Shown: in pieces, positions 48,478-64,000 of the stretch | Numbering within the stretch: the first letter of the stretch is position 1 | How the letters are laid out: each line of letters opens with the position of its first letter | Assembly: GCF_029167625.1 (NCBI RefSeq) | Contig: NZ_CP119145.1 | Location: forward strand, 3,286,001-3,350,000 | DNA: 64,000 nucleotides | From: Streptomyces sp. AM 4-1-1 | GTDB lineage: Bacteria; Actinomycetota; Actinomycetes; Streptomycetales; Streptomycetaceae | Direction of reading: 5' to 3' | Notes under the pieces: model-generated | The model's database searches: none | Told to the model about the DNA's origin: nothing | The model's input: the letters and a program-made list of their open reading frames with translations, nothing else | Translations under genes and position numbers: made by a program

Positions 48478-48529
48478 CCCCTGCAATTCGCTGCGGGGGC
48501 CTTCGACATCGGTGATCGCAGTTCTGGTC

Positions 48530-48994
48530 TCAGTCGACCGACTGACAGCGCCTCGGCTCATGTCCCGTGTTCACGGGCTCCCCCGTTCCTCCCTCCCTCC
48601 CGGCCATCGCCTCCCGGTACGCCTCGGGCAGGCCGAGTGCCACGGCCAGGACGAGGTCCCGCTTGTGCGTGATGGTCACGCTGATTTCGTGCAGGTCCAG
48701 GGTGGCCGCCCGGGCGGCGGCCGCACCGGTGAGGCGTACGGCGGGGGCGCCGTCGTCCTCGCGCAGGACGGCCACCTGGCAGGGCCGCACTCCGCCCGCC
48801 ATTCCGGTGCCGAGTACCTTCAGCACCGCCTCCTTGGCCGCGAACCGTCCGGCGAGGAACTCCCGGGCGCGGGCGGGGCCGAAGCTCTCGGCCGTGGCCA
48901 GTTCCTCCGGCGTGTAGACGAAGGAGGTGAACCAGCTCCGGCCGAGCAGCCGATCCAGCTCGCCGAGGTACAGCAGGTCGGCCCCGAGCCACAT
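48530..48994 (-). CDS. Holo-ACP synthase (AcpS-type phosphopantetheinyl transferase) 1
   Basis: 154 residues. GADLLYLGELDRLL keeps the metal Asp of the AcpS GxDxx motif, and EFLAGRFAAKEAVLKVLGTGM is the KEAxxK signature; LDLHEISVTITHKRDLVLAVALG ends the domain, then a ~30-residue polar tail. It would transfer 4'-phosphopantetheine to the cluster's ACPs. Its ATG overlaps the upstream stop (TGATG). Its 3' end lies only 52 bp from attR. Confidence 0.87.
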   Translation of the reverse strand: MWLGADLLYLGELDRLLGRSWFTSFVYTPEELATAESFGPARAREFLAGRFAAKEAVLKVLGTGMAGGVRPCQVAVLREDDGAPAVRLTGAAAARAATLDLHEISVTITHKRDLVLAVALGLPEAYREAMAGREGGTGEPVNTGHEPRRCQSVD

Positions 48995-49809
48995 CACTCG
49001 TCCCTGTCGCCCGCTGCCGTGAACACCGCGAGATGACCGCGGCCGTCGCGCGGGTCCGTGTCGCAGAGCACGACCTTGCGGTACGTGCGCTGCCACCGCT
49101 GCCAGTTCTCGGCGAGCTCCAGCCAGACGCCGGTGCAGTACGTGCCGGGCGGGGCACGGTGGGCGTCCGCGCCCTCCGGCACCGGTACCTCCCCGGCCCA
49201 GGGGCCGAACACGAACAGGGTCCGCCGTGTGCCGTCCTCCCGGGCGCAGGCATCGGCCAGTGACGGCACGGTGGCGACCCGCGCGAGGTTCAGCCCCTGT
49301 CCCTCGCCCGAACGGAGCACCAGCGCCGCCGCCGAGTCGGTCAGCGGGGTGTCGTGCACCAGCGGGAACCTGGTCGGCAGCGTGGTCTGTTCCAGTACCG
49401 CGATGACCACCTCGGCCGCCCGCCCCGCGCGGTGGTACGCGGCAGCGATCCGCAGCGCGGTGAACGGGGCGGCGAGCCCCTGCTGTCCGACGGCGAAGTT
49501 GACCGCCTCGCCCCCCAGGCGCTCGGTGAGGTGGGGGGAGATCGCGGTGAACGGCACCACGTCCGGCAGGGCGTGGGCGACCACCAGCAAGTGCGGTCTG
49601 CTCTCCCGTACCCCGTCGGCTTCGGCGAGCAGGTCCGCGAGCTGCCGGTGGCTCACGTGGGGGCCCCTGCCCAGCAGTTCCTCGTCCGGTTTGATGCCGA
49701 AGGGGCCCAGCAGGTCCCGGAAGTACTCCAGGGCCGCCGTGTCGTCGGCGGGTGCCTCGCCCCTCGGTGCGCGCACCGCGGCGGCCGCTCCTACGGTCAG
49801 GTGTGTCAT
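48994..49809 (-). CDS. KASIII/thiolase-fold protein with Cys replaced by Gln (CLF-like)
   Basis: 271 residues with thiolase-fold character (LLVVAHALPDVVPFTAISPHL, NFAVGQQGLAAPFTALRIAA, DSAAALVLRSGEG). Where KASIII enzymes have the nucleophile in an A-C-x-G-F turn, this reads GQQGLA, so the Cys is a Gln, as in chain-length factors of type II polyketide systems. The C-terminal His/Asn half is short or missing. It is encoded with a Cys-containing KASIII-like protein, separated only by an ACP gene, so a heterodimer is plausible. Overlaps the ACP gene by 4 bp. Confidence 0.6.
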   Translation of the reverse strand: MTHLTVGAAAAVRAPRGEAPADDTAALEYFRDLLGPFGIKPDEELLGRGPHVSHRQLADLLAEADGVRESRPHLLVVAHALPDVVPFTAISPHLTERLGGEAVNFAVGQQGLAAPFTALRIAAAYHRAGRAAEVVIAVLEQTTLPTRFPLVHDTPLTDSAAALVLRSGEGQGLNLARVATVPSLADACAREDGTRRTLFVFGPWAGEVPVPEGADAHRAPPGTYCTGVWLELAENWQRWQRTYRKVVLCDTDPRDGRGHLAVFTAAGDRDE

Positions 49810-50087
49810 GCCGCCACCTGTCCCGCCGTCAGCAGTTTCTCGACGTAGTCGGCGAAGGACCGGATGGTGCGCAGATGGTCGATGTCGAGGGTCTCCGGGT
49901 CGACCGCGGCCCCGGTGCTGTCCTCGACCAGCAGCAGCAGTTCGAGTACGGACGAGGAGTCGAGCCGCAGGTCGTCGAAGAGGCCGGTGTCCTCGGGCAC
50001 CCGCCCGATCTGCCGTCCCAGCACGTCCTCCAGTGCTTCCTCGATGGCCGCGAGGACCTGGTCGCGGCCCGGCGCCGTGTCGTTCAC
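49806..50087 (-). CDS. Acyl carrier protein 1
   Basis: 93 residues. The phosphopantetheine attachment site is DDLRLDSSSVLELLLLVED, with Ser after LD, in a four-helix ACP layout (VLAAIEEALEDVLGRQIGRV at the start and a LRTIRSFADYVEKLL end). GTG at 50087 has AGGAGGG upstream and overlaps the KASIII stop by 4 bp (GTGA). Confidence 0.9.
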   Translation of the reverse strand: MNDTAPGRDQVLAAIEEALEDVLGRQIGRVPEDTGLFDDLRLDSSSVLELLLLVEDSTGAAVDPETLDIDHLRTIRSFADYVEKLLTAGQVAA

Positions 50088-51049
50088 GCGCCGCCCTCCT
50101 TCCGGTGGGTGATCACCATGGCCCCGAAGGTCGCGCCGAGGCCGACCGAGACCAGCACGTAGTGGGCGCCCTCGGTGAGCCGGCCCGCCTCGCGCAGGGT
50201 GGTGTAGTTGACGAACACGTCGGACGCGAAGGTGTGGCTGTAGCGGGGGACGTTCTCCAGGAAGACCCGCTCGGGGGCCACGTCGAGCGCCTTGATGGTC
50301 TGGCGCCAGGCGAGCATGTTGACGTTGTGCGGGATGATCAGCTCGATGTCGTCCAGGGTGAGGCCCGCGTCCGCCACCGCCCGGTTGATCACCTCGGCGA
50401 TCCGGGGCCCGTACTGCTGGCCGAACTCGTTGTTCTGCTCCGCCGTCAGCTCCAGCCACTGGGCGTACTCGCCGAGCGTGCGCGTGGTGAAGGCGTGGAC
50501 CTGGTCCCCCTGTCCGTCGATGGTGACCAGGCAGGCCGCCGCCGCGTCCGCCATGATCGCCGTGTTGGGGATGTGCTGGACGATGGGCGAATAGGCCCGC
50601 TCGCCCGTCACCATCAGGGCGTACGCGCTGTCGTCGCCCTCCGCGCGCAGCAGTTCGCCCACCACGTCGATGGCGCCGAGGCTGGAGACGCACGCCTGGT
50701 GGCTGAGGGCGAACGCCTCGGTTCCGCCTTCGGCGAGCCCCAGTTCGTCCCTGACCACCTGGGCGACGTCCACGTCGGGCGGTGCGACCGCCTGGGTGGT
50801 GTGGGCGTAGACGAGATAGGCCAGCCTGCCGCCCTCGGGCAGCGCCTCCAGCGCGCGCCGCGCCGCGGGCCTCACCAGGTCGAAGAGGCCGATGTCCGGA
50901 TCGAACCGAAGGGTGTCGAGACCGTAGAACTTCCGGAAGACCCCCAGTTCGGCCCGGCGGAGCCCGAGGTGCTCACCCAACTCCTCGATGCGCAGGCTGC
51001 GTTCGGGCAGATGGGATTCGATGCGTTCCAGTGTGGTGTGACCGCCCAT
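50084..51049 (-). CDS. KASIII-like ketosynthase/acyltransferase
   Basis: 321 residues. Nucleophile Cys in ALSHQACVSSLGAIDVV; His in LIIPHNVNMLAW; the position usually occupied by the catalytic Asn reads YSHTFASDVFVNY (His in place of Asn). The rest follows the KASIII plan (VYAHTTQ, AACLVTIDG, VSVGLGATFGAMV). It may load or condense an acyl or aminoacyl group on an ACP, or act as an acyltransferase as some KASIII relatives do. ATG overlaps the methyltransferase stop (TGATG). Confidence 0.82.
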   Translation of the reverse strand: MGGHTTLERIESHLPERSLRIEELGEHLGLRRAELGVFRKFYGLDTLRFDPDIGLFDLVRPAARRALEALPEGGRLAYLVYAHTTQAVAPPDVDVAQVVRDELGLAEGGTEAFALSHQACVSSLGAIDVVGELLRAEGDDSAYALMVTGERAYSPIVQHIPNTAIMADAAAACLVTIDGQGDQVHAFTTRTLGEYAQWLELTAEQNNEFGQQYGPRIAEVINRAVADAGLTLDDIELIIPHNVNMLAWRQTIKALDVAPERVFLENVPRYSHTFASDVFVNYTTLREAGRLTEGAHYVLVSVGLGATFGAMVITHRKEGGA

Positions 51050-51873
51050 CAGCCGACGGCGATCTCTGCGCGGATCAGCCACAGGCGGTTGGCACCGCGC
51101 CTGCTCCTCGGCTGGACCTCGTACGGCCAGCGCCCCTCACCGGCACCGGGAGCGCCGGGCTCGCGCAGGTCCGTCACCTTCCAGCCGTTGCCTTCGATGA
51201 ACTCCTCGGGCTGGTCGGTGCCGAAGATCCACGGCGTGCCGTCGGCCGCGAGCGTGTCCAGGAACGGCTTGGAGAAGGGGCTGCGCAGCAGGGACCGGCC
51301 GAGGATGTCGAAGGAGAGCCGGCTGCCGGGCGCGGACGCGGAGGCCAGCAGCCGCAGCAGACCCGCCGCCTGCTCCTCGGTGAGGAAGAAGGTGAGCGCC
51401 TCGGCGATCCACAGGGTGGGCCGGGAGGCGTCGAAACCGGCGGCCTTCAGGTCCGGCAGCCACTCCCCCGTCAGATCGGCCGGGACCTCGCGGCGGTCCG
51501 TGCGGGGCTCCGCGCCCAGCGCGTCCAGGCGCCTGCGCTTCTCTTCGATGAGCGGGCCGTGGTCCACCTCGTAGACCTTGGTGCCCTCGGGCCACTGGAG
51601 ACGGAAGGCCCGGGTGTCCATGCCCGCGGCGATCAGGACGACCTGCTGGATGTCGGTCTCGGCGAGCGTGGTCCGGATGCTGTCGTCGAGGAACTTGGTA
51701 CGGATGGAGATGAACGGCAGTAGCCCTCCGCCCTGGTAGCGCTCGATGAGGTCGAAACCCTTGGGCGCCGCGAGGTCACGGGCGAGCGGGTCGTGGTAGA
51801 GGGCATCGTCCCGCTCGGATTCCAGCGCTCGCGCGGCGGCCATCCACTGGGCCGTGTAGGAGACTGCGTGCAT
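51049..51873 (-). CDS. SAM-dependent methyltransferase, leucine-carboxyl-methyltransferase (LCM) family
   Basis: 274 residues. The family pattern YTAQWMAAARALES, DPLARDLA, SIRTKFLDDSI, VVLIAAGMDTRAFRLQWPEGTKVYEVD, IAEALTFFLTEEQ and FDILG is complete. Members O-methylate small molecules or carboxylates, fitting a tailoring step. A 340-bp repeat-rich gap separates it from the ACP-fusion gene on its right, so it may have its own promoter. Confidence 0.87.
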   Translation of the reverse strand: MHAVSYTAQWMAAARALESERDDALYHDPLARDLAAPKGFDLIERYQGGGLLPFISIRTKFLDDSIRTTLAETDIQQVVLIAAGMDTRAFRLQWPEGTKVYEVDHGPLIEEKRRRLDALGAEPRTDRREVPADLTGEWLPDLKAAGFDASRPTLWIAEALTFFLTEEQAAGLLRLLASASAPGSRLSFDILGRSLLRSPFSKPFLDTLAADGTPWIFGTDQPEEFIEGNGWKVTDLREPGAPGAGEGRWPYEVQPRSRRGANRLWLIRAEIAVG

Positions 51874-52213
51874 GATTCGCCTCTTCAGGGGTCGGGGTGT
51901 GGTCGGTCACGGCCGGCGGGCCGGGACCGTCGGGGCGGCCGGGGAGGCCGGGAGGTTCGGGGAACCGGGCGCGGTCCGGGAAGGCCGGGGTAGCAGGGCA
52001 GTTCGAGGAGCCGGGAAAGCCCGGGGAGCCCCGGACGGTCCGGGGAGCCCGGGAAAGCCCCGGGAGCCCCGGAAGGCCCGGGGAGCCCGGGAAAGCCCCG
52101 GAAGCCCCGGTAACCCTGGGAGGCCAGGACGGCCGGGAAGCCCAGGAAGGCCGAACGGCCCGGAAGCTCCGGTACGGCCAGGTAGCCCCGGAAGCCCGGG
52201 ACAGCCGGGCAGG
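51874..52213. repeat. Gap with GGAGCCC/GGAAAGCCCC tandem repeats
   Basis: From about 51930 to 52200 the plus strand is a chain of GGCCGGGA, GGGGAGCCCCGGA and GGGAAAGCCCC units; GGGGAGCCCGGGAAAGCCCC occurs exactly at 52042-52061 and 52080-52099. No gene is supported. The part next to 51873 likely holds the promoter or leader of the methyltransferase operon. Confidence 0.65.
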
Positions 52214-52930
52214 TCAGGAGAAGAACGCCTTCTGGATGGTCGCGAGGGACTGGAAGTCCTCGATGTCGATGGCGTCGAAGTCGATCTCGGTGCCGCTGGC
52301 GTCCTCGATCGTGTAGACCAGCTCGACGAAGGAGAGCGAGTCGACCAGTCGGCTCTCGATGATGTTGACGTCCATGGCCAGCTCGGTGCGGTCGGCGTGC
52401 CGCCCGAGTATCCAGTCCCTGACCTTCTCGATTCCGGTGGAGGTGGTGACGGAACTCATGGGTTTCCTCTCAGAGTTGGGTTCTGCGGGTGGTTCGGAAG
52501 GGGTGGCGGGGGCGTGGGCGACCGCCGCGGCGACCGCGACGGCGTAGCCACCGTCGTGGCTGATGCTGACGTCGACCGGGCCGAGCCCGGCGCTGCGGGC
52601 GAGGCGGGCGGCCCGTCCGGTGAGCCGTACGAAGGGCCTGCCACCGGTGCCGCGCAGGATCTGGATGCCGGGCCAGGGCAGCGGTTGCCCGGTGGAGCCG
52701 AACAGCTTGAAGACGGCTTCCTTGGCGGCGATGCGCCCGGCGACGGCCGCCGGGTCGGGCTCGCCGTCGGGGTCCGGGCTCGACTGCGCCAGTTCCTCGT
52801 CGGTGACCATCCGGTGGAGGGCGGGGCCCGACTCGGGGTCGAGCAGGGCGGGAATCCGGGAGAGCGGGACGATGTCGACGCCGATGCGGGGCAGTGCGGC
52901 GGCGATCGCCGGCGCGGGATCAGCCCGCAT
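52214..52930 (-). CDS. AcpS-type phosphopantetheinyl transferase fused to an acyl carrier protein
   Basis: 238 residues in one uninterrupted frame. Residues 1-~148 are an Acp[16 protein letters not shown] and [15 protein letters not shown], ending [20 protein letters not shown] ~20-residue Pro/Glu/Ser linker leads to an ACP with attachment site [18 protein letters not shown]. The ACP begins with an internal ATG at 52459 preceded by AGAGGAAA, so free ACP (81 residues, 52214-52459) may also be made. The start at 52930 overlaps the ligase gene by 11 bp. A sequencing error that removed a stop codon is the alternative explanation. Confidence 0.8.
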
Positions 52931-53759
52931 CGACGGCCGCCGCCCGTACGGCGTCCGCCGCGGCGTCCAGGTCGTCGTCGAAGTGCTCGGACAGTACGGC
53001 CAGCCAGCGCTCCAGGCCGAAGGCGACACAGGAGGTGAAGGCGTGCTCGCCGGAGGCGAGGGTGATACCGCAGCGTTCACCGAAGAAGTTGCGGTGGGTG
53101 TTGACCGAAGCGATGGCCAGGTCGCCGTACTGGAACTCGTACTTGACCGGGCTGAGTTTGGCCAGCAGGGCGCGGGCACCGTCGTTCTTGAAGAACGGGT
53201 CGGTGGCCGCCTCCTTGGCGAGACCGATTCCGAGCGCGTCGGAGAAGGCCAGGATGCGTTCGGTGGAGCGGGCGATGACCCGCTGGGTGTGTTCGTACGT
53301 GCCCAGGGCGACGATCTCGCGCATCTGGAAGCTGGCCAGGCGCCGCAGTCCCCCGTAGTGGTCCTCGTTGCGGAAGCACCGGTTGACCAGGGTCACCAGG
53401 GTGTCGTCGGCGACCCGGCCGCCTTCGTGGAAGAGGTAGGCGCCGTAGCAGGTGGCGTGCGGCAGGCCGTAACGCGCCTCGCGCAGCTGGGCCCGGTCGA
53501 ACGCGCCGCCCAGCGGCTTGGCGTCACCGGCCTCCAGGTCCAGTGAGCCGGCCACCCACGCCAGGTGCGGGAAGTTGTCGTAGACGTCGAACTTCTCCAG
53601 GTCGGTGACCGGGTACAACGGCGGAGGGCTGATCTCGTCGGCCCCCGCGGCGAGTCCCCAGCCGGCGAACGTCCGGTCCAGCTCCCTGAGCAGCCGGGTC
53701 GCCCCGGGCCCGAGGATCGCCAGGGCCTGTTCGCCCCCGCTGCCGGTCAGCCGGTTCAT
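52920..53759 (-). CDS. Amino acid--[carrier protein] ligase (class II aminoacyl-tRNA-synthetase-like)
   Basis: 279 residues. It resembles the seryl-tRNA-synthetase-derived aa:CP ligases that charge carrier proteins instead of tRNA. Motif 2 is RCFRNEDHYGGLRRLASFQMREI, motif 3 AFGLERW. Zinc ligands of the archaeal-SerRS type appear as Cys in ATCYGAY, Glu in FQMREI and Cys in FTSCVAFG. The tRNA-binding arm is absent. It should activate a small amino acid with ATP and load it on one of the cluster's ACPs. It overlaps the diiron gene by 4 bp. Confidence 0.85.
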   Translation of the reverse strand: MNRLTGSGGEQALAILGPGATRLLRELDRTFAGWGLAAGADEISPPPLYPVTDLEKFDVYDNFPHLAWVAGSLDLEAGDAKPLGGAFDRAQLREARYGLPHATCYGAYLFHEGGRVADDTLVTLVNRCFRNEDHYGGLRRLASFQMREIVALGTYEHTQRVIARSTERILAFSDALGIGLAKEAATDPFFKNDGARALLAKLSPVKYEFQYGDLAIASVNTHRNFFGERCGITLASGEHAFTSCVAFGLERWLAVLSEHFDDDLDAAADAVRAAAVDAG

Positions 53760-54631
53760 CGGACGATTCCCGTCTTCCGCAGGAACTTGGTGGTCTTGCG
53801 GAACGTCTGTTCCTCGGCGTGGACCCGGGCCGGTGAGGCGAGCAGTTCACGGCGTATCCCGTGCGGGTCGTCGAGCCCGGCGTCGCGGTAGACCTGCGGG
53901 TGGTAGAGGGATTCGAAGCTGTGGGTCATGTAACGGCGCAGATAGCCGGAGATCTCCTGGAGTTCCTCCTCCGTCGCCGTCCTGCGCACTTCCTCGAAGA
54001 GCAGTTGGACCAGTTCGCGGCCGAAGGCGATGTGCCGGGACTCGTCCTGGTGGTGAATGCGGTTGATGGCGCGGATCGTCTCGTGCAGCCGCTCGTCCAC
54101 CGCCATCGAGGAGTTGTAGTGGTCCACCAGCTCTTCGAAGATCATGATGCGGGCGAAGACGAGCAGGTTCTCCACCGCGGCCGATGAGGTGGGGGCGGCC
54201 GTGGCGCCGGCCGGCTGGCGGTAGATCTTGCCGTTGCCGTAGCGCAGGCAGAACTCCGCGAAGAACCACATGTGCTCGTTCTCCTCACCGATGAAATGGT
54301 GGAAGAACTCGGACGGCGCCTCGAATCCTGCTGTGTGGATGCGGTTGACGACCTCGATGAGGAGTTCGCGAATGCCGTGCACATTGAGGCTGTAGAAGTT
54401 GATGCTCTCGTACCGCGAGAGGGCGTGGGCCTGCTCGGGGCTGAGCCGCCGCGCCACCTCCGTCCCGTGGGTGGTGGTGAGTTCGGGGCTCATCCACCAC
54501 ATGTCCTCGGGGAGCCGGTCGGGCCAGTCGAAGAGCCGGTACGGGTTGTAGTAGTCGTCGATGGACTTGGCGCTGAGGCGACCCAGAATCCCCTGGAACC
54601 GCTCGCTGCGCTCGATGACTTCGCTGACCAT
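53756..54631 (-). CDS. AurF-family diiron N-oxygenase
   Basis: 291 residues, all-helical. Ligand motifs are YESINFYSLN (E), GEENEHMWFFAEF (E..H), MIFEELVDHYN (E) and HHQDESRHIAFGREL (H...E..H), in the order of AurF/CmlI. AurF-type enzymes oxidise amines to hydroxylamine, nitroso or nitro groups, in some cases on carrier-bound substrates. With the adjacent aa:CP ligase, oxidation of the amine of an ACP-bound amino acid is the simplest inference. First gene of the minus-strand operon. Confidence 0.87.
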   Translation of the reverse strand: MVSEVIERSERFQGILGRLSAKSIDDYYNPYRLFDWPDRLPEDMWWMSPELTTTHGTEVARRLSPEQAHALSRYESINFYSLNVHGIRELLIEVVNRIHTAGFEAPSEFFHHFIGEENEHMWFFAEFCLRYGNGKIYRQPAGATAAPTSSAAVENLLVFARIMIFEELVDHYNSSMAVDERLHETIRAINRIHHQDESRHIAFGRELVQLLFEEVRRTATEEELQEISGYLRRYMTHSFESLYHPQVYRDAGLDDPHGIRRELLASPARVHAEEQTFRKTTKFLRKTGIVR

Positions 54632-54928: not shown

Positions 54929-57900
54929 GTGGCAAAGCAGCTCTCAGCGGAGAAACGAATTTTGCCGGATACCTCAGAAATTATTTCCGTGTCCGCCGGA
55001 AGCTGGATCCAGGCGGCGCGCAAACGCGCCGTGATGAGCCAGCGGGAACTGGCCGCGAAGGCCGGGATGAGCACCCGGGCACTGCGCGACATCGAGCACG
55101 GCCGGGTCCGGCAGCCCCAACTGAGCACGGTCCGGCGCCTGATCACCGCCCTGGGACTCGCCGACGCCGAGGCCGCGGCCCTGCACGCCGCGGTACGGGG
55201 GAACGCGTCCCAGGCCCAGGACGGCAGGCGGCTGCGCCTCCTCGTCCTCGGCACGCTCTCGGTGCAGCGCGGAGAGAGCCAGGTGGTGATCGCCCGGCCC
55301 ATGCTGCGGCGGATCATCGGGCTGCTGGTGCTCAAGCACCCGCAGCCGGTCACGCGGCAGGAGCTGGTGGACACCCTGTGGCCGTCCAACCCGCCCCGCT
55401 CCTACCAGAGCCTGATCCACACCTACATCAGCCAGGTGCGCCAGAGCCTCGGACAGGGCACGTCGCGCTCCGCGGCGCCGGGCGTGGAACGCGTCCCGGG
55501 TGGATACGTGCTCAAGGTCGACCGGAGCCAGACGGACCTGGGCCGCTTCCAGGAGCTCGTGGCCCGCGCGAAGCGCTCCCGGAGCGCCGGGTCCCCCGAG
55601 CTCGCCCACGACTCCCTGACGGCCGCGCTGCGGTGCTGGCGCGGGCCGCTGCTCGCGGACATGGACCCCGCGCTGCAACAGCACCCGAGGGCCGTCGCCG
55701 TCACCGAGAGCCGTACCGAGGCCGCCCTCCTCCACGCCGACCTGGCCCTGGAGTTGGGCCGCCCCGAGCAGTCCGTACGTCTGCTGTGGTCCGTGGCCGA
55801 CAGCGATCCGCTGCACGAGGGGGTGCACGCACGGCTGATGCTCACGCTCGCGGCCTGCGGCGAACAGGCCGCCGCACTCAAGGTGTTCGCCGCCTTCCGG
55901 GACCGCCTCGACGACCAGCTCGGCATCTCCCCGAGCGACGAGATACGCGACGCGCACCTGCGCGTCCTGCGCCAGCAGCTGCCCCGTCCCGACCGCGGCG
56001 CGGACCCGGAGCCCGCCACCGCCGACCGGCCGGCCACCGCCCGGCCCGCCCAACTGCCGTACGGCACCTCCTGGTACACCGGCCGTGACCGGCAGATGCA
56101 CGAGCTGGACGCGCTGCTGAACGACGACCCGGCCGAGCACACCCCCATCGTGACCGTGATCGGCCCGCCCGGCGTCGGCAAGACGGCCCTCGCGCTGCAC
56201 TGGGCCCATGCCCATCGCGACCACTTCCCCGACGGACAGCTGTTCGTGAACCTGCAAGGGCACTCGCTGCTGCCCGCCCTGCGCCCCGTGGACGTCCTGG
56301 CCCGCTTCCTGCGGGCGCTGGGCGTGGCACCGGGGCAGGTGCCACCCGGTGAGGACGAGGCGGCCGCTCTCCTGCGCACGCTGCTCGCGGGTGAACGCAT
56401 GCTGATCGTGCTGGACAACGCGGCGGGCGTCGACCAGGTGCGCCCGCTGCTGCCGGGGAGCGGTGCCTGCCGGACCGTCATCACCAGCCGCACCCACCTC
56501 TCGGGCCTGATCGCCAACGACGGGGCCCGGCCGCTCAGCCTGGACGTGCTGAACCTGAGCGAGGCCCACGCCCTGCTCACCCGCATCCTCGGCGAGCACC
56601 GGGTGGCCGACGAGCCCGACGCCGTGGTGGAGCTGGCCAGGCTGTGCGGCTGGCTACCACTGGCGATCCGCATCGCCGGGGCCAATCTGATCGCCAACGG
56701 GAGCGCCGGCGTGGCGGATTACTGCGCGGAGCTGGTCAACGGCGATCTGCTCGGCAGGCTCCAGGTGGAGGGCGACGAACGGTCCGCGGTACGGGCCGCC
56801 TTCCACCTCTCGTACCAGGCCCTGCCCGAACCCGCCCGCCGCATGTTCCGGCTGCTCGGCCTCGCTCCGGGGCCCGACATCACCGTGCGGGGCGCCGCGT
56901 CCCTGATCGACGCGGACCCGGCCGAGGCCGAACCGCTGCTCAGGTCGCTGGCCCACGCCCATCTGGTCCAGGAGCCGGAACCCGGACGGTTCGGCATGCA
57001 CGACCTGCTCCGCTCCTACGCCCGCGAGCTGGTCGCGGACGACGAGAGCGGGGCGCGACGGCGTCTGCTCGACTGGTACACGCGAGGCGCGGAGGCGGCC
57101 GCCCTGGTCCTGTATCCGGAGGACCCGGTACTGCGGGCGCGCGCCGGGGAGGGGAACGCCACCGAGGCCGCCGTCGCCGACGCCACCAAGGCGACGGAGT
57201 GGCTGGAGAGCGAACGCGAGAACCTGATCGGTACGGTGCTGTTCGCGGCGGAGTCCGGGGAGCACCGGACCGCCTGGCGGCTGGCGGAGGCGCTGTACGG
57301 CTTCCTCTCCCAGGGCACGTACACCACCGAGTGCCTGGCGGTCGCGGAGGCGGGGTTCGCTTCCGCGACGGCGGACGGTGATCCACGGGCCCGGTCGGCG
57401 GCCCGTCTCAAGATCGCCGACTGTCACTGGGCGCAGGGCCACAACGCGGTGGCCCAGGAGCAGTACGCCGACGCGCTGGACCTGGCCACCGAGGCGGGCT
57501 GGGCCGACGGGCAGGCCGCCGCGCTGCGCCGGATCGGCGCCGCGTACCAGGAGAACGGCGCCATGCGCACGGCATCCGGACTGTTCCTGCGGGCGCGCGG
57601 TCTCACCGGGCAGACCGAAGGGGTGGGCGCGGCCGACGACTTGATGAACCTGGGGCTGATCGGCTGGAAGCTGGGGCGGCTGCACGAGGCCGTTGCCCAC
57701 TACACACAGGCCGCCCGCCTCTTCAGGGACCTGGGTTCGCTCAGCGGCGAGGCCATATCGCACACCAACCTGGGGATCGTCTACCGCGCCCTCGGCCGTC
57801 CCCTGGACGCCATCCAGGTGATGAACGAGGCCCTGCACGTGCACACGCTCAGCGGCAACAAGGCCAGCGAGACAGTGGCATTGAGCTGCCTGTCGTCGGC

Positions 57901-58513
57901 CCACTCCGACCTCGGCGACCACGAGTCGGGTACGCGTCTGGCGCGTACCGCGCTCGCCTCGGCCCAGTCCATGCGCAACCGGCGCCTGGAAGCCAACGCG
58001 CACTTCTCGATGGGTACGGCGCAGGAGCGGGCCGGCGACCTGGAAGGGGCGTCGGCCAGCTACCGGGAGGCGCTGCACCTGGCGGAGGTGGTCAACGACC
58101 GCTATCCGCAGGTCTACGCGCTGGTCGGACTCGCCACGATGCGGCTGCGCCTGGGCGCTCCCGAGGAGGCGCTGGCCACCGCCCACCAGGCCCTGTCCCT
58201 CGCCCAGGGGGCCGAGTTCCGGCTCCTCGAAGCGTCCGCGCTCAACGTCCTGGCCCAGGTGCGGGTCGTCCTCGGTGAGCCGGCGCGTGCGCTCGACGAC
58301 GCCGGACGGGCGCTCATCCTGCACCGGGAGACCGGTCACCGGCCCGGTGAGGCGCGCAGCCATCTGGTGATCGGCAGCGCGTACCGGGCGCTGGGCGCCC
58401 GGGGCCGGGCGTTCGGGCACTGGCGCCGGTCGCTGCTGCTCTTCCGGGACATGGGTGTGGCGGGCTTCCGGGACCTGAACGTCCGTGCCGTGGGGGGCGC
58501 CGCCCGCCCCTGA
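54929..58513 (+). CDS. Large SARP-type pathway regulator (XRE HTH, SARP, NB-ARC ATPase, TPR)
   Basis: 1194 residues. In order: an XRE helix-turn-helix (MSQRELAAKAGMSTRALRDIEHG, about 36-58), an OmpR-like winged helix and BTAD (LVLGTLSVQRG, then QELVDTLWPSNPPRSYQSLIHTYISQVRQ; LGRFQELVARA), an NB-ARC ATPase with Walker A GPPGVGKTAL (about 411-420) and LIVLDNA, then about ten TPR-like helical pairs from residue 740. GTG start at 54929. Such AfsR-like regulators activate secondary-metabolite clusters; an extra XRE domain before SARP is uncommon. Confidence 0.9.
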   Translation: MAKQLSAEKRILPDTSEIISVSAGSWIQAARKRAVMSQRELAAKAGMSTRALRDIEHGRVRQPQLSTVRRLITALGLADAEAAALHAAVRGNASQAQDGRRLRLLVLGTLSVQRGESQVVIARPMLRRIIGLLVLKHPQPVTRQELVDTLWPSNPPRSYQSLIHTYISQVRQSLGQGTSRSAAPGVERVPGGYVLKVDRSQTDLGRFQELVARAKRSRSAGSPELAHDSLTAALRCWRGPLLADMDPALQQHPRAVAVTESRTEAALLHADLALELGRPEQSVRLLWSVADSDPLHEGVHARLMLTLAACGEQAAALKVFAAFRDRLDDQLGISPSDEIRDAHLRVLRQQLPRPDRGADPEPATADRPATARPAQLPYGTSWYTGRDRQMHELDALLNDDPAEHTPIVTVIGPPGVGKTALALHWAHAHRDHFPDGQLFVNLQGHSLLPALRPVDVLARFLRALGVAPGQVPPGEDEAAALLRTLLAGERMLIVLDNAAGVDQVRPLLPGSGACRTVITSRTHLSGLIANDGARPLSLDVLNLSEAHALLTRILGEHRVADEPDAVVELARLCGWLPLAIRIAGANLIANGSAGVADYCAELVNGDLLGRLQVEGDERSAVRAAFHLSYQALPEPARRMFRLLGLAPGPDITVRGAASLIDADPAEAEPLLRSLAHAHLVQEPEPGRFGMHDLLRSYARELVADDESGARRRLLDWYTRGAEAAALVLYPEDPVLRARAGEGNATEAAVADATKATEWLESERENLIGTVLFAAESGEHRTAWRLAEALYGFLSQGTYTTECLAVAEAGFASATADGDPRARSAARLKIADCHWAQGHNAVAQEQYADALDLATEAGWADGQAAALRRIGAAYQENGAMRTASGLFLRARGLTGQTEGVGAADDLMNLGLIGWKLGRLHEAVAHYTQAARLFRDLGSLSGEAISHTNLGIVYRALGRPLDAIQVMNEALHVHTLSGNKASETVALSCLSSAHSDLGDHESGTRLARTALASAQSMRNRRLEANAHFSMGTAQERAGDLEGASASYREALHLAEVVNDRYPQVYALVGLATMRLRLGAPEEALATAHQALSLAQGAEFRLLEASALNVLAQVRVVLGEPARALDDAGRALILHRETGHRPGEARSHLVIGSAYRALGARGRAFGHWRRSLLLFRDMGVAGFRDLNVRAVGGAARP

Positions 58514-58980: not shown

Positions 58981-59607
58981 GTGGAGATCACTTGCGCCGC
59001 ACGGCCCGGGGGTGACCCCGGCGGAATCGAGGACGTCATCGTCACGGGCGGCCGCTTCGCCGTCCTGGTGAACACGGCCGGCCCGGGGCCCGGCACACAT
59101 CCACCGGCACATGAGATCTGCGCCCAGCTGGTGGCCGGCCTGATCCAGCACGCCGATACGCCCCTGCCCGCGCTGCTGGACGCCGCCCTCGGCGAGGCGG
59201 AGGCAGGACCCCCCGCCTCGGGGTCCGAGCCCCCCGCCTCCCTCTCCGTCGCCGTGGCCCGCACCCGCGAGGGCAAGGTGGATCTGCTCCTGCGGGGCGA
59301 GACGGCCGCGCTCATCCAGTTCCCGGACCTGACCGTCAACGAGATGCTGCACAGCCGCTACCCCGGCCGGGCCCTGGTCGGCAGCCTGCCCGTGTCGGAG
59401 GCCCGCCGGGTCTGCCTGCTGTCCGAGGGCGCACGCCGGCTGGCCGACCGGTGCGGCTGGGACTGCCGCCGGATTCTCGACCAGGTGACCGCCGAGGGCC
59501 CTGACGCCCTCCTGGCGAAGATGCGCGCGGCCGCGCCGGGCGACCTCGCACCGCCGTCCCGGCTCCCCGGAGCGTCGGTGGCGCTCTGCTCCCCGTACAC
59601 CCGCTGA
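58981..59607 (+). CDS. PP2C-like protein with lost metal ligands (pseudophosphatase)
   Basis: 208 residues following the PP2C plan: VIVTGGRFAVLVNTAG in place of a DG-containing strand, a PHxxHE-like helix start, SLSVAVARTREGKVDLLLRGETA, VCLLSEGARRLADRCGW and SRLPGASVALC. At the four places where PP2Cs carry metal-binding Asp (DGA, GDS, TDG, DDAT) there is Asn/Thr, Glu, Ser-Glu and Pro-Gly. It would bind rather than hydrolyse phosphoproteins. GTG at 58981 has AAGGAGAA upstream. It precedes the condensation-like gene and likely shares its transcript. Confidence 0.6.
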   Translation: MEITCAARPGGDPGGIEDVIVTGGRFAVLVNTAGPGPGTHPPAHEICAQLVAGLIQHADTPLPALLDAALGEAEAGPPASGSEPPASLSVAVARTREGKVDLLLRGETAALIQFPDLTVNEMLHSRYPGRALVGSLPVSEARRVCLLSEGARRLADRCGWDCRRILDQVTAEGPDALLAKMRAAAPGDLAPPSRLPGASVALCSPYTR

Positions 59608-59662
59608 CGCGTTCCAGCCCTCCGCGTCCTCACTCCCTTCCGACCTATCCGAGGTGTCCCCT

Positions 59663-61420
59663 TTGTCACAGTTCACAGTGGCCTTCTCCGGTCTTTCCCA
59701 CCGCACCGGACCACTCTCGTTCGGACACGCCAACATCCTGCGGGCCATCACCATCGACGACGACCCGACCCGGCTCAACCTGGCCATGGTCTTCGACGCC
59801 CCGGCCGACGGCGGACTCGACCGCGTGGCACGGCAGTTGCACACGCTCCTCGCACGGCACGAGTCACTGCGCACGACGTACCGGTCCGCCACCCCCGTCA
59901 CCCAGCGGGTGGCCGGCGACGGCGCCCTTACCGCCGAGGTCGTCGACGGCGGCTCCGACCCGCTGGAGACCGCCGAGCGCACCGCGCGCCGACTGCGTTC
60001 CAAGACCTTCGACCTGAGCGCGGAACTGCCCTTCAGGGTCGCGGTGGTCACCGCGGACGGCGCGCCGCGCCACCTGGTGTGGGTGGTCTCGCACGCCGCG
60101 ATGGACGTGGCGGCCTGCGAGGTCCTGCACGCGGAATGGCACGCCCTGTCGACCGGCGAACCGCTGCCCCCGGCGCCCGCGTCGGAGCCCGTCGACGTCG
60201 TGGAGCTGGAGCGGACGCCCTCCATCAAGCGGCTCGGCGAAGGGGCCGTACGGTACTGGGAATCACAGATCCGCCAGGTGCCGCAGGCGATGTTCACGCT
60301 CCCGCACACGGCTCCCGCGAAGAACGACTGGCTGCACCCCGGACTGAACATCCGCTCACGCACCGTCCCCGCCCAGCTCGAAGCCATCGCGGAGCGCACC
60401 GGCGCCAGCGCGTCCGCCGTGGCGCTCGCGGCGCTGGCCACACTGATCGGCCACCGCACCCGCAACGAGTCCGTGACCACCACCTCGCTCTCCGGCAACC
60501 GGGTGGTGCGCAAGCTCCACGGGTTCTTCGGTTCGCTGGCGCAGGACGCGCTGCTGCCGGTCGACCTCTCCGGGGCCGCCACCTTCGACGACGTGGTCCG
60601 CCAGGTGCGCTCCGCCGGCCTTCCCGCCTACCGGCACAGCTGGTTCGACCCCACCGCCGTCTGGCAGGTCATCAACGGCGTGAGCGCCGGACGCGGCATC
60701 AGCTTCGCCCGCGACCTGGTCTTCAACGACATGAGCGCGCTGGCGGCCGCGGCCGGTTCGCCCGACCGGTCCGCGCTCGGGCGGCTGCCCGGCGTCTGGA
60801 TACCCGGCCACCAGCCCCCGCTCCAAGAGGATGCGGAACTCGGCGGCGGGATCACCTGGCTGCCCGCCGAGGACATCCCCTGCCGGTTCTTCATCTGCCT
60901 GTACCAGCTGGAGGAGGAGTTCGAGGTGACGCTCTGGATCGACCCGTACGTCCTGGACAAGGACGAGGCGGAGGAGTTCGGGCGGTCCCTGCTGCGGCTG
61001 CTGCGGGCCGCCGCCGGGACCGAACTGCCGCTGACCGAACTGCCCCCGCTCATCACGCTGCCACCGGTCGACCGCGGCGAGGGCTGGTATCTGAGCGACC
61101 ACTCGTGGATCGAGCTGGACGCCGTACGGGAACTGATCTCCGAGGTCGTCGGGGACGCCCCGCACCTGGTCACCATCGAGCCCGACGAACGGCTCGGGCA
61201 CCGCCTGGTGTGCCATCTCGTCGCGCCCGCCGCACCGGAGTCCGTCCACGAGCGCACCCTGGTGGCGCTCCCGGGACGGGTCACCGCCATCGCCCCGCAC
61301 CGCTATCTGGTGCACCCCGCCGCACCGCCCGCCGACGGCCTCGCCGACCCCGCGGCGTGGGCCGCCCTGCCCGTGATCGCGGACGCCTCCGGACGCGCCG
61401 AAGGACGTGTGACCGCATGA
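59663..61420 (+). CDS. Stand-alone condensation-domain protein (NRPS C-domain-like)
   Basis: About 585 residues. The core motif is VSHAAMDVAAC (second His and Asp of HHxxxDG kept; first His is Ser and Gly is Val); LSFGHANILRAITIDDD at the start, LATLIGHRTRNESVTTTSLSGN and LHGFFGSLAQDALLPVDL follow C-domain motifs. The last ~110 residues extend beyond the fold. A free C-domain could join an ACP-bound amino acid to an amine, alcohol or second acyl group. TTG at 59663 has GAGG upstream; GTG at 59654 is the alternative. Confidence 0.75.
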   Translation: MSQFTVAFSGLSHRTGPLSFGHANILRAITIDDDPTRLNLAMVFDAPADGGLDRVARQLHTLLARHESLRTTYRSATPVTQRVAGDGALTAEVVDGGSDPLETAERTARRLRSKTFDLSAELPFRVAVVTADGAPRHLVWVVSHAAMDVAACEVLHAEWHALSTGEPLPPAPASEPVDVVELERTPSIKRLGEGAVRYWESQIRQVPQAMFTLPHTAPAKNDWLHPGLNIRSRTVPAQLEAIAERTGASASAVALAALATLIGHRTRNESVTTTSLSGNRVVRKLHGFFGSLAQDALLPVDLSGAATFDDVVRQVRSAGLPAYRHSWFDPTAVWQVINGVSAGRGISFARDLVFNDMSALAAAAGSPDRSALGRLPGVWIPGHQPPLQEDAELGGGITWLPAEDIPCRFFICLYQLEEEFEVTLWIDPYVLDKDEAEEFGRSLLRLLRAAAGTELPLTELPPLITLPPVDRGEGWYLSDHSWIELDAVRELISEVVGDAPHLVTIEPDERLGHRLVCHLVAPAAPESVHERTLVALPGRVTAIAPHRYLVHPAAPPADGLADPAAWAALPVIADASGRAEGRVTA

Positions 61421-62748
61421 GCACCACGACCGACGCGCACACCGGCGGATCACCGGAGGGAATCCCGGCGAACGAAGCACCCGCCGACCCGGGGCGGCCC
61501 GGGGCGCCGGAGCGCGGGACATCCGTGTGGACCACCAACTTCCGGCTCTACTTCGGCGCCCGGACCGGCTCACTGCTGGGCGACGCGATGCTGCCCGTGG
61601 CCCTCTCCGTCGGCCTGCTCGACGCCGGATACGGCTCGTCGGGCGTCGGATACGCGCTCGGCGCGTGGATGGCCGCGCTCGCACTGTGCATGCTCTTCGG
61701 AGGGGTCCTCGCCGACCGCTTCACGCCTCGCCGGATGATGGTGCTCGCGGATCTGGCCCGGCTGGCGATCCAGGCGGGCATGGCGGTGATGTTCGCCACC
61801 GGTTCGACCTCCCTGATCGGCGTCGTCGCCCTCCAGTTCCTCAGCGGCGCCGCCACCGCGCTGTTCCAGCCCGGCGTGGCGAGCATGGTCCCGCAGGTCG
61901 CCACCGACGTGCAGCGGGCCAACGGGGTGCTCAGGGTCGCGGAGTCGGTGGCCGGCGTCCTCGGCCCGGCGCTCGCGGGGCTCCTGGTCAGCTTCTCGGG
62001 CCCGGGGACCGTGTTCGGCATCTACGCGGCGACGTACGCGCTGAGCGCCGGATGCCTCTTCGCCCTGCGCCTGGACGCGGCTGCGGCCGGCGACGGCGAA
62101 GCGGACTCCTTCCTGCGCCAACTGGCCACCGGATGGCAGGAGTTCAAGGCCCGCACCTGGCTGTGGGGGGTCATCTCCATCTTCCTGCTGTACGGGTGCT
62201 TCGTGGCCGGCGTCTCGCTGCCGGTCGGGGCCGACCTGATCGTGAGCGACCTGGGGTCCACCGCGCTCGGCATCGGCATGGCCGCCTTCGGCGCGGGCGG
62301 AGTGCTCGGCGGCTTCGTGGCCATCAAGGTGCGCAGCGAACGGCCACTGGCCGCGGGCTCCCTCGGCTGGGCGCTGTTCGCCCTGTATCCGATCATGCCC
62401 GCGCTGCGTCCGGGCGTCGTCACGCTCTCGGCCGGGTGGGCCCTGGCCGGTGCCGGTCTGGCCTACTGGTCGGTCATCTGGGCGACCACCGTACAGACCC
62501 AGATCCCCGCCGAACTGCTCAACCGGGTGTACGCCTACGACGTCGCCGGATCGCTGACCTCCATGGCGCTGGGCCGCTCACTGGCCGGTCCGCTGGCCTC
62601 CGTGACCGGGCAGCGCACGCTGATGGTCCTGGCCACGGCGCTCGGACTGGCCTGCGCGGGACTCCTGCTCGCGGTACCGGCCATCCGGCAGCTGCGGGCG
62701 GTCAGGACCGGTGCGGAACCGGACGAGGACGAGAAGCAGAGGAGTTGA
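61417..62748 (+). CDS. MFS transporter (probable product exporter)
   Basis: 443 residues with ~12 membrane spans. The MFS loop motif GGVLADRFTPRRMMVLADLARL is intact; ATALFQPGVASMVPQV and LLNRVYAYDVAGSL are typical of MFS-3/enterobactin-exporter-like proteins. Start overlaps the condensation gene stop (ATGA). Export of, or self-resistance to, the cluster product is the likely role. Confidence 0.88.
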   Translation: MSTTTDAHTGGSPEGIPANEAPADPGRPGAPERGTSVWTTNFRLYFGARTGSLLGDAMLPVALSVGLLDAGYGSSGVGYALGAWMAALALCMLFGGVLADRFTPRRMMVLADLARLAIQAGMAVMFATGSTSLIGVVALQFLSGAATALFQPGVASMVPQVATDVQRANGVLRVAESVAGVLGPALAGLLVSFSGPGTVFGIYAATYALSAGCLFALRLDAAAAGDGEADSFLRQLATGWQEFKARTWLWGVISIFLLYGCFVAGVSLPVGADLIVSDLGSTALGIGMAAFGAGGVLGGFVAIKVRSERPLAAGSLGWALFALYPIMPALRPGVVTLSAGWALAGAGLAYWSVIWATTVQTQIPAELLNRVYAYDVAGSLTSMALGRSLAGPLASVTGQRTLMVLATALGLACAGLLLAVPAIRQLRAVRTGAEPDEDEKQRS

Positions 62749-62750
62749 CC

Positions 62751-63842
62751 ATGAACACCGCGGTCCGGACCGCCCGTGCCCATGCCACGTCCGCCACGAT
62801 CCCCCCGCACCCCGAGGGTGTCGACGAATTCGCCGTCCACGTCTACGAGTACACGCTCGGCCACGGCAGCGTCACGCCCGAAGTCCTCGCCACCGAGCTG
62901 GACGCCCCCGCGCACCGCGTCGAGCAGGCCCTGAGTACGCTGCGCGGGCTCCACCTGGTCAAGAGCGCGGCCGGGTCGGGACGCGAACTCGTCGCCGTGC
63001 ACCCGGAAGCCGCCCAGTTGGAACTGCTCCTGCCCCTGGAGAGCGCCATCCGCGACCACCGGCGCCGTCTGGCGGGCGTCAAGGGACAGCTCCTCTCCTT
63101 CATGGAGGTGTTCGACAGCACCCGACAGCACCGCGAGACCGTCGTGGTCACCGATGACCGGGGCGAGATCGCACTGCGCCTGCGGGAGGCCGCTCAGTGC
63201 TGCGCGTCGGAGATACTGCTGATGCAGCCGTGCGTCACCCAGGAACCCGCCGAGCTGATCAACGCCCGGCCGCTGATCAACGAGGCACTGCAACGCGGCG
63301 TCCAGGGGCGGGTGTTGTACCCGCACACGGCGCGCAGCGACGCCGCCGCCCGTTCGTACGCCCTACGGCTCACCGCGGCCGGCGGCCAGGTACGCACATC
63401 GCCGGACCTGCATGCCCGCTTCCTGGTCTTCGACCGCAAGACGTCCTTCGTCACGGTGGACGACGGCACGAGCGACAGCAGCGTCGTCACCATCATCTAC
63501 GAACCCTCCGTCGCGACGTTCCTCGGCTCCATCCACGACCTGGCCTGGCAGTCCGCGTTCCCCCTCCAGCAGGGGACGAACGGTTACGCCGGGACCCTCG
63601 ACGACCTGAGGGCCACGATCGTCGGACTCCTCGCGTCCGGTATCAAGGACGAGGTGATCGCCCGCCGGGTCGGCCTGTCGGAGCGCTCCTTCCGCCGTCA
63701 TGTCGCGGCGATCATGCAGAACCTGGCCGCCAGGAGCCGTTTCCAGGCCGGGGTGATGGCCGCGCAGACCGGTCTGCTCGCCCCGGTCCGCGAGGGCCGC
63801 GCCCCGCTGGTCCCGGCCACCACGGCCAGCGGGGCCGCATGA
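62751..63842 (+). CDS. TrmB/LuxR-type transcriptional regulator with PLD-like middle domain
   Basis: 363 residues. An N-terminal winged helix (VDEFAVHVYEYTLGHGSVTPEVLATELDAPAHRVEQALSTL), a central sensor domain of phospholipase-D fold type (ILLMQPCVTQEPAELINARPLINEALQRGVQGRVLYPH, LHARFLVFDRKTSFV), and a C-terminal LuxR-like helix-turn-helix (GIKDEVIARRVGLSERSFRRHVAAIMQNL). ATG at 62751 has GAGG upstream, 3 bp after the MFS gene. Probably senses a product or precursor. Confidence 0.85.
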   Translation: MNTAVRTARAHATSATIPPHPEGVDEFAVHVYEYTLGHGSVTPEVLATELDAPAHRVEQALSTLRGLHLVKSAAGSGRELVAVHPEAAQLELLLPLESAIRDHRRRLAGVKGQLLSFMEVFDSTRQHRETVVVTDDRGEIALRLREAAQCCASEILLMQPCVTQEPAELINARPLINEALQRGVQGRVLYPHTARSDAAARSYALRLTAAGGQVRTSPDLHARFLVFDRKTSFVTVDDGTSDSSVVTIIYEPSVATFLGSIHDLAWQSAFPLQQGTNGYAGTLDDLRATIVGLLASGIKDEVIARRVGLSERSFRRHVAAIMQNLAARSRFQAGVMAAQTGLLAPVREGRAPLVPATTASGAA

Positions 63843-64000
63843 GCCGCTACGCCCGTCTCGCCTACACGCCGGCCGTCCGCCAGGTCCAGCACGAGATGGG
63901 CAGCGGAATCGCGGCGGGCCGCAGGCTGCGCGAGCCGGGAGACCTGCCGGAACCGCTCACCTCGGCGGAGGCCGCGTTCGTCGGGAGCCTGGACGGCTTC
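63839..64000 (+). CDS. Pyridoxamine 5'-phosphate oxidase-like flavoprotein, N-terminal fragment
   Basis: 54 codons before the window ends. The start YARLAYTPAVRQVQHEMGSG and LTSAEAAFVGSLDGF resemble the family that precedes the FMN-binding SETGWPYVQHRGGP segment in actinobacteria. ATG overlaps the regulator stop by 4 bp. Could be a further redox step of the cluster. Only the N-terminus is visible. Confidence 0.5.
   Translation, partial: MSRYARLAYTPAVRQVQHEMGSGIAAGRRLREPGDLPEPLTSAEAAFVGSLDGF

What the first reader, a model, noticed from the sequence alone, without database searches (positions are those of the whole stretch)
48530..64000. Unassigned biosynthetic cluster: aa:carrier ligase, AurF-type oxygenase, KASIII pair, two AcpS, two ACPs, condensation protein
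Amino acid loading without an NRPS module, followed by amine oxidation on the carrier and joining by stand-alone KASIII-like or condensation proteins, is a rare logic. It suggests an N-oxygenated small molecule (hydroxylamine, nitro or azoxy type). I cannot match the gene set to a known product.
Basis: inference. Interest (0 to 1): 0.75.

Follow-up and report, generated by a model that had tools for sequence, protein, structure and literature searches.

The report
Orphan O-methyl-nitronate biosynthesis gene cluster
This stretch of a soil bacterium's chromosome holds a gene set that probably turns glycine, held on a carrier protein, into the rare O-methyl nitronate group known from the antibiotic enteromycin, and then joins it to a partner that is still unknown.

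Summary
The genes are real and form one cluster (48530 to 64510; the last gene lies mostly past the window end). Diiron oxygenase, amino acid:carrier ligase, carrier protein and this methyltransferase stand together in 65 of 80 ligase loci. Among 78 oxygenase+ligase loci, 65 have this methyltransferase, 9 a nitronate monooxygenase, 4 neither, none both. That is the published fork of glycine-derived nitronates (O-methylation or denitrification), recovered from sequence. So the core is of a known kind.

The rest is less ordinary. Two KASIII-like proteins and a second carrier form a separable module. In 13 related clusters it sits with an ATP-grasp enzyme and a BtrK-like decarboxylase (9 also with an acyl-CoA dehydrogenase), which matches the amide-forming dehydro-beta-alanine route proposed for bolagladin and would fit enteromycin. 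The window lacks these partners and has a stand-alone condensation protein instead. Its second building block and product are unknown. Verdict: new variant of a known kind, an O-methyl-nitronate cluster with an unassigned second half.

The parts
53756..54631 (-). AurF-type diiron oxygenase, proposed to oxidise carrier-bound glycine to the nitronate
   Evidence: PF11583 120.8 bits. Within 24 homologs E117, H120, E166, H193, E197 and H200 are invariant and line up with ligand-type residues of two other AurF-family proteins of the same genome; the first Glu ligand was not resolved.
52920..53759 (-). Amino acid:[carrier protein] ligase, class-II aaRS type, proposed to load glycine
   Evidence: PRK07080 94.3 bits, under its cut-off; Bll0957 3mey E 1.1e-29 with the profile; C104, E148 and C244 align with a Cys, Glu and Cys of Bll0957 and are invariant in 27 homologs. 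That these are the zinc ligands is recalled.
52460..52930 (-). AcpS-type phosphopantetheinyl transferase (first), in one open frame with the next gene
   Evidence: PF01648 41.6 bits
52214..52459 (-). Carrier protein 1 (DSL serine motif), proposed glycyl carrier
   Evidence: NCBIfam carrier models, best 23.9 bits, under cut-off; own ATG with GAGAGGA upstream; homologs in the same place
51049..51873 (-). Leucine-carboxyl-type methyltransferase, proposed nitronate O-methyltransferase
   Evidence: PF04072 164.7 bits, TIGR00027 215 bits
50084..51049 (-). KASIII-like protein a (Cys-His-His)
   Evidence: PF08541 61.5 bits; C120, H241 and H272 invariant in 21 homologs
49806..50087 (-). Carrier protein 2
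   Evidence: PF00550 37.1 bits
48994..49809 (-). KASIII-like protein b, shortened, without the nucleophile Cys
   Evidence: No Pfam or NCBIfam match; KASIII fold by prediction; no Cys at the elbow
48530..48997 (-). AcpS-type phosphopantetheinyl transferase (second)
   Evidence: PF01648 48.1 bits on the frame 48530-49096
54929..58513 (+). SARP-type regulator with NB-ARC and TPR parts
   Evidence: PF03704 117.6 bits; best NCBIfam AfsR model 533 bits, under cut-off 1430
58981..59607 (+). Protein of unknown family, conserved in some relatives
   Evidence: No Pfam or NCBIfam match; homologs beside the SARP in L008 and L024
59654..61420 (+). Stand-alone condensation protein
   Evidence: PF00668 75 bits; [ST]H[AV]AMD[VA] in window, L008, L023, L024 and L037
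61525..62748 (+). MFS transporter, proposed exporter
   Evidence: PF07690 85.4 bits
62751..63842 (+). LuxR-type HTH regulator with PLD-like part
   Evidence: PF00196 23.9 bits, cut-off 23.5; PLDc_2 under cut-off
63839..64000 (+). Start of a PPOX-type flavoprotein gene that ends at 64510, past the window
   Evidence: PF01243 42.7 bits on the full gene from the genome

Best explanation
An orphan cluster for a small peptide-like metabolite with an O-methyl nitronate end. The ligase activates glycine and loads it on carrier 1, which the first AcpS has armed. The diiron oxygenase oxidises the amine to a carrier-bound nitronate, and the carboxylate-type methyltransferase caps the nitronate oxygen. 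KASIII a takes the acyl group on its Cys and, together with the Cys-less KASIII b, passes it to an amine (or first to carrier 2, armed by the second AcpS) instead of making a carbon-carbon bond. The stand-alone condensation protein forms a further amide or releases the product, and the MFS protein exports it under SARP and LuxR-type control. Shown here: the gene set, its recurrence, the MT-or-NMO fork, the catalytic residues and the modular nature of the KASIII pair. Inferred from published work: glycine -> nitronate -> O-methyl nitronate. Inferred by me: the role of the KASIII pair and the condensation protein. Unknown: what carrier 2 holds, and the product.
For: Cassette: 65 of 80 ligase loci carry oxygenase, ligase, carrier 1 and MT. 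Fork: of 78 oxygenase+ligase loci 65 MT, 9 NMO within 6 kb, 4 neither, 0 both; two NMO cases are annotated as nitronate monooxygenase in named records. Literature: passages state that carrier-bound glycine is turned by a diiron oxygenase into a nitronate and by a methyltransferase into part of enteromycin carboxamide (PMC12183544), and that an NMO can denitrify it instead (PMC11035981). Catalytic residues kept: ligase, oxygenase, KASIII a. 16 of those 28 have no nitronate cassette, and 15 of the 16 have a BtrK-like decarboxylase. Precedent: in bolagladin a KASIII homologue is proposed to join a fatty acyl group to the amine of beta-alanyl carrier (PMC7756342). In every KASIII a row that could be read there (61 of 63) the Asn of FabH is a His.
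Against: No sequence comparison with the published enteromycin carboxamide cluster was possible (not held). The 80 loci were picked by likeness to the window's ligase, which favours the MT side, and 7 of the 9 NMO cases come from one genus, some nearly identical. The NMO cluster of Tistrella also has an annotated methyltransferase of another class, so 'none both' holds for this methyltransferase family only. Carrier 2 has no loading enzyme in the window cluster: no ATP-grasp, decarboxylase or adenylation gene was found there. The bolagladin KASIII proteins are reported with Ser and Thr in place of Cys, unlike KASIII a here. That glycine is the substrate is not tested here.
Confidence: 0.72

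Rival explanations
1. The KASIII pair does a carbon-carbon (Claisen) condensation: the O-methyl-nitronoacetyl group is extended with malonyl held on carrier 2, and the condensation protein then adds an amine.
For: KASIII fold and a kept Cys and His; no amino acid loading enzyme for carrier 2 in the window cluster; malonyl could come from primary metabolism.
Against: The Asn that FabH uses in malonyl decarboxylation (role recalled) is a His in 61 of 61 readable rows. Carrier 2 of the window kind resembles carrier 2 of the clusters with ATP-grasp and decarboxylase (mean score 208.5) far more than carrier 1 (77.3), which points to an amino-acyl type of carrier.
Confidence: 0.2
2. The cluster makes enteromycin or a close analogue with the same 3-aminoacrylate part, supplied in trans.
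For: Same nitronate cassette and KASIII pair as the 13 clusters that also carry ATP-grasp and decarboxylase, including one of Streptomyces albireticuli and one of S. achromogenes. The window's own genome has a second locus with ATP-grasp, BtrK-like decarboxylase, carrier and acyl-CoA dehydrogenase.
Against: Only 3 of 16 searched genomes with the window's kind or the sister kind of cluster hold such an ATP-grasp protein anywhere (one more genome was not held), against 16 of 150 genomes of the genus. The second locus in the window's genome has its own carrier and KASIII pair. A condensation protein replaces the missing genes.
Confidence: 0.12
3. The oxygenase stops at an oxime or hydroxylamine and the methyltransferase works on a carboxylate of the final product, so the product has no O-methyl nitronate.
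For: The methyltransferase family is named for carboxyl methylation. An oxime end occurs in akazaoxime, an enteromycin-class compound (PMC9967187, passages).
Against: The methyltransferase travels with the oxygenase and ligase in very different surroundings (34 of 80 loci have oxygenase, ligase, carrier and MT without the KASIII pair), and it takes the place of a nitronate monooxygenase.
Confidence: 0.12

Closest known systems
Enteromycin carboxamide pathway (He and Ryan 2021, doi 10.1038/s41557-021-00656-8; not readable here)
   Same: Carrier-bound glycine, diiron oxygenase, nitronate, methyltransferase (as stated in passages of PMC12183544, and PMC9967187)
   Different: Could not be compared by sequence. 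Clusters here that would fit enteromycin (13 loci) also have ATP-grasp and BtrK-like decarboxylase genes, which the window lacks.
Glycine-nitronate denitrification cassettes
   Same: Diiron oxygenase, carrier and ligase of the same families (e.g. Tistrella mobilis pTM2; Streptomyces sp. NBC_01431)
   Different: They have a nitronate monooxygenase where the window has the methyltransferase.
Bolagladin dehydro-beta-alanine route (PMC7756342; passages and section 7, part 2 read)
   Same: KASIII homologues proposed to N-acylate a carrier-bound beta-amino acid
   Different: The window has no adenylation enzyme, decarboxylase or dehydrogenase for it. BolM and BolP are reported with Ser and Thr at the Cys site; KASIII a here keeps Cys and b lacks it. 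No direct sequence comparison was made.
PqsBC of Pseudomonas aeruginosa
   Different: Only a shared fold; many other KASIII and type III PKS chains score the same or higher.
Amino acid:[acyl-carrier-protein] ligase Bll0957
   Same: Class-II aaRS-like core; Cys/Glu/Cys positions match
   Different: 94.3 bits to the NCBIfam model, far under its cut-off of 357; the window family is its own branch.

Membership tests
Glycine-nitronate O-methylation pathway (enteromycin type) | Diiron oxygenase, carrier, carrier-loading enzyme and methyltransferase encoded together | tested here: met
   recurrence in 65 of 80 loci
Glycine-nitronate O-methylation pathway (enteromycin type) | Methyltransferase in place of nitronate monooxygenase | tested here: met
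   0 of 78 oxygenase+ligase loci have both
Glycine-nitronate O-methylation pathway (enteromycin type) | Glycine as the loaded amino acid and nitronate as oxygenase product | not testable with these tools
   Needs in vitro assays
Glycine-nitronate O-methylation pathway (enteromycin type) | Homology to the proteins of the published cluster | not testable with these tools
   Paper not held; no MIBiG here
Enteromycin cluster with 3-aminoacrylate module | ATP-grasp, BtrK-like decarboxylase and acyl-CoA dehydrogenase in the cluster | tested here: not met
   Present in 13, 13 and 9 of 80 loci at the thresholds, not among the window cluster's genes
AurF family of diiron oxygenases | Match over Pfam cut-off and diiron ligands | tested here: met
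   120.8 bits against 29.6; six ligand-type residues invariant, the first Glu unresolved
Decarboxylating KASIII (FabH) | Cys-His-Asn triad | tested here: not met
   Cys and His kept, Asn replaced by His
NRPS condensation domains | HHxxxDG motif (recalled) with catalytic second His | tested here: inconclusive
   [ST]HxAMD[VA]: second His and Asp kept, first His and Gly not; PF00668 75 bits
PqsBC-like heterodimers | Physical pairing of active and inactive KASIII | not tested
   Only gene pairing (31 of 31) and fold were examined

The most novel reading that the evidence does not exclude
KASIII a and b form a dedicated amide synthase: a Cys-His-His KASIII with a Cys-less partner that joins an acyl group from one carrier to the amine of an amino acid on a second carrier. 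The pair is a mobile part that nature has combined with glycine-nitronate cassettes, modular PKS ends, fatty acyl ligases and an NRPS. In the window it works with a stand-alone condensation protein and an unknown amine to give O-methyl-nitronate amides unlike enteromycin.
Probability: 0.42. Interest if true: 0.72.

Novelty: new variant of a known kind. Interest (0 to 1): 0.52.

Why it matters
O-methyl nitronates are rare reactive groups. The survey shows that the cassette which makes them is common in actinobacteria and is coupled to several different second halves, so more compounds of this class than the few described can be expected. It also offers a concrete test of an open point in the bolagladin work, where either of two KASIII homologues was proposed to form the amide bond: here a KASIII pair stays together across many clusters with different acyl donors.

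Tried and rejected
(1) The finding as azoxy, hydroxylamine or plain nitro product: set aside because of the methyltransferase and the NMO alternative. (2) One ligase charging both carriers: carrier 2 of the window kind is no more like carrier 1 (mean 77.3) than carrier 2 of the ATP-grasp clusters is (95.8), so there is no support. (3) Supply of the second amino acid in trans by an ATP-grasp module: 3 of 16 genomes only (L023 not held), 16 of 150 in the genus. (4) Identification of the akazaoxime cluster in Micromonospora as an independent check of the methyltransferase: 12 regions around AurF-type hits were fetched, and none had a homolog of the window's methyltransferase; the akazaoxime cluster was not recognised. 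(5) Mapping the diiron ligands on a solved AurF: neither the window family's profile nor another AurF-family protein of the genome found an AurF entry; an alignment with two genome paralogs was used instead. (6) Rfam: no match in 47500-64000. (7) Literature: no paper with all six terms; 'O-methyl nitronate' none; KASIII/amide/ATP-grasp/enamide none with five of six terms; one search gave the bolagladin paper. These searches cover open-licence PMC papers only. (8) Which residue of KASIII b stands at the Cys site (Gln, Gly, Leu or Ala) was not settled; only the absence of Cys was.
Full report
What is there. My own gene calling with Pfam and NCBIfam gives a minus-strand operon from 54631 to 48530: AurF-type diiron oxygenase; amino acid:carrier ligase; AcpS and carrier 1 in one open frame; a gap of 340 bases with GC-rich repeats; leucine-carboxyl-type methyltransferase; KASIII a; carrier 2; KASIII b; second AcpS. 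Six of seven junctions overlap by 1 to 11 bases. On the plus strand follow a SARP-type regulator, a protein of unknown family, a stand-alone condensation protein, an MFS transporter, a LuxR-type regulator and, mostly outside the window, a PPOX-type flavoprotein (to 64510). The genome has two further AurF-family genes elsewhere.

How common. One scan of species genomes with a ligase profile found 244 relatives among 268 pattern matches and kept the best 80. Searched with the window's proteins, 67 of 80 have oxygenase and ligase, 65 have oxygenase, ligase, carrier 1 and methyltransferase, and 59 of these also the first AcpS over my threshold. 31 have KASIII a, and the same 31 have KASIII b and carrier 2. 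11 have ligase and carrier but no oxygenase or methyltransferase. The choice of the 80 favours near relatives of the window.

The fork. Of 82 loci with an oxygenase of this kind (67 of the 80, 12 Micromonospora regions, 3 plasmid records), 78 have a ligase. Of the 78, 65 have the methyltransferase, 9 have a nitronate monooxygenase within 6 kb, none has both, 4 have neither (L007, whose contig ends just after the AcpS; L053; L101; L113). Seven of the nine are Micromonospora regions, four of them nearly alike; the two named ones are Tistrella mobilis pTM2 and Streptomyces sp. NBC_01431. In the Tistrella record a methyltransferase of another class is annotated next to the monooxygenase. I recall from the abstract of He and Ryan 2021 that glycine-derived nitronates go either to O-methylation or to denitrification; the title is cited in PMC9967187, and passages of PMC12183544 and PMC11035981 say the same. 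The sequence survey agrees with it in full, which is the main ground for the assignment.

Catalytic residues. The ligase keeps C104, E148 and C244 in 27 of 27 homologs, aligned with a Cys, Glu and Cys of Bll0957. The oxygenase keeps E117, H120, E166, H193, E197 and H200 in 24 of 24. KASIII a keeps Cys in 63 of 63 rows and the first His in 60 of 61 readable rows (the exception is L131, which also lacks the decarboxylase); the position of the FabH Asn is His in 61 of 61 (two rows, L022 and L129, from one broken sequence, are unreadable there; rows include loci fetched twice). KASIII b has no Cys near the elbow in 52 of 52 rows long and strong enough to use, of about 60. Its model resembles many KASIII and type III PKS structures about equally well, so the fold says little on function.

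Three kinds of clusters with the KASIII pair. Kind A: window, L008, L023, L024, L037, with the window's condensation protein. Kind B: 13 loci (L010-L022) with a different condensation protein and, in the example that I scanned, a polysaccharide-deacetylase-type gene. Kind C: 13 loci with ATP-grasp and decarboxylase, 9 of them with an acyl-CoA dehydrogenase. L009 has the pair without any of these within the fetched stretch. In a quick tree of the oxygenase (83 rows, SH-aLRT support only, long branches flagged) the window groups with L008 and L024 (92), then with kind B (98); the KASIII label needs at least 7 changes, so the pair has been gained or lost repeatedly.

The module on its own. A search of 392 genomes of the window's genus with KASIII b found it in 30 at E 1e-10, 17 of them with 240 bits or more. 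It missed the more distant copy in the window's own genome (39.8 bits), so this is a lower bound. I fetched 28 loci from 27 of the 30 genomes (own genome, G113 and G147 not fetched); at least 8 of the 28 have the contig lengths of loci already seen. KASIII a stands beside b in all 28. 12 have the nitronate cassette (in L117 the oxygenase was not seen), 16 do not. Of these 16, 15 have the decarboxylase, 11 the ATP-grasp gene and 10 an acyl-CoA dehydrogenase over 250 bits. Neighbours that I recognised by eye in the lists include the end of a modular PKS (L138, L128), fatty acyl ligase and dehydrogenases (L133; also the window's own genome) and glutamate-mutase-like genes (L136); in Streptomyces decoyicus the module lies beside an annotated NRPS. 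The best solved relative of the kind C decarboxylase is BtrK, 319.7 bits, against 154.2 for the best diaminopimelate decarboxylase.

Interpretation. In bolagladin biosynthesis aspartate is proposed to be loaded on a carrier, decarboxylated by a BtrK-like enzyme, N-acylated by one of two KASIII homologues and desaturated by an acyl-CoA dehydrogenase; deletion of the decarboxylase gene and of the dehydrogenase gene supports those two steps, while the KASIII step is a proposal (PMC7756342). Kind C is the same set plus the O-methyl nitronate cassette. From memory enteromycin is an O-methyl-nitronoacetyl amide of 3-aminoacrylic acid and is made by S. albireticuli; one kind C locus is from S. albireticuli (L039), one from S. 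achromogenes subsp. achromogenes (L026), and PMC11035981 names S. achromogenes var. streptozoticus for enteromycin. So kind C fits enteromycin, though I could not check it against the published cluster. The bolagladin paper counts only enamidonins as further carriers of such a residue, which does not mention enteromycin.

The window, kind A, keeps the cassette, the KASIII pair, carrier 2 and the second AcpS, but none of the genes that load and decarboxylate an amino acid on carrier 2. Carrier 2 is still of the kind C type (mean alignment score 208.5, against 77.3 to carrier 1). The ATP-grasp gene is not generally found elsewhere in such genomes (3 of 16). Either an unlinked enzyme loads carrier 2, or the pair passes the acyl group to carrier 2 itself and the condensation protein makes the amide. 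A condensation protein of the same wider family (34% identity) lies near a ligase homolog, a carrier-sized gene, a phosphopantetheinyl transferase, an MFS gene and a phytanoyl-CoA-dioxygenase-type gene on a Streptomyces clavuligerus plasmid, so ligase plus stand-alone condensation protein is a recurring partnership even with another oxygenase.

Confidence. Glycine to O-methyl nitronate on carrier 1: about 0.85. KASIII pair as acyl transfer or amide-forming enzymes rather than a Claisen pair: about 0.6. Product: unknown. I found no description of the window's full gene set in the searches, which cover open-licence papers only.

Noticed in passing
window 52214-52930: AcpS and carrier 1 share one open frame with no stop between them; the carrier keeps its own ATG and GAGAGGA motif, so fused and separate products are both possible. 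The same is seen in 4 of 80 related loci (L025, L033, L038, L060) and in L124.
   Followed up: partly
window 51874-52213: The gap of 340 bases before the methyltransferase is filled with imperfect GC-rich tandem repeats (period 19 and 38). Function unknown.
   Followed up: partly
window 39528-48028: Two convergent proteins with the type ISP specificity domain, one complete with Mrr-type nuclease and helicase parts, the other with methylase and specificity parts only.
   Followed up: no
L147 (same genome, 752000-771900 of contig 1): A second KASIII-pair module with fatty acyl ligase-like gene, dehydrogenases, ATP-grasp, BtrK-like decarboxylase, condensation protein and phosphopantetheinyl transferase: a likely lipid-dehydro-beta-alanine cluster.
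   Followed up: partly
L149 12803-21721 (Streptomyces clavuligerus plasmid): Ligase homolog, small gene, phosphopantetheinyl transferase, phytanoyl-CoA dioxygenase-type gene, condensation protein and MFS gene: an uncharacterised cluster with another oxygenase in place of the diiron enzyme.
   Followed up: no
L113 (Streptomyces sp. NBC_00335 plasmid): Oxygenase, carrier and ligase beside ketosynthase/chain-length-factor genes, AMP-binding proteins and pabB, with neither the methyltransferase nor an NMO: a possible third fate of the nitronate.
   Followed up: no
L136 766-3628: Glutamate-mutase-like genes (recognised by eye, not by a family search) beside the KASIII module, which would supply 3-methylaspartate to carrier 2.
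   Followed up: no
window 63839-64510: PPOX-type flavoprotein gene next to the LuxR-type regulator, kept in several related clusters; perhaps self-protection.
   Followed up: no
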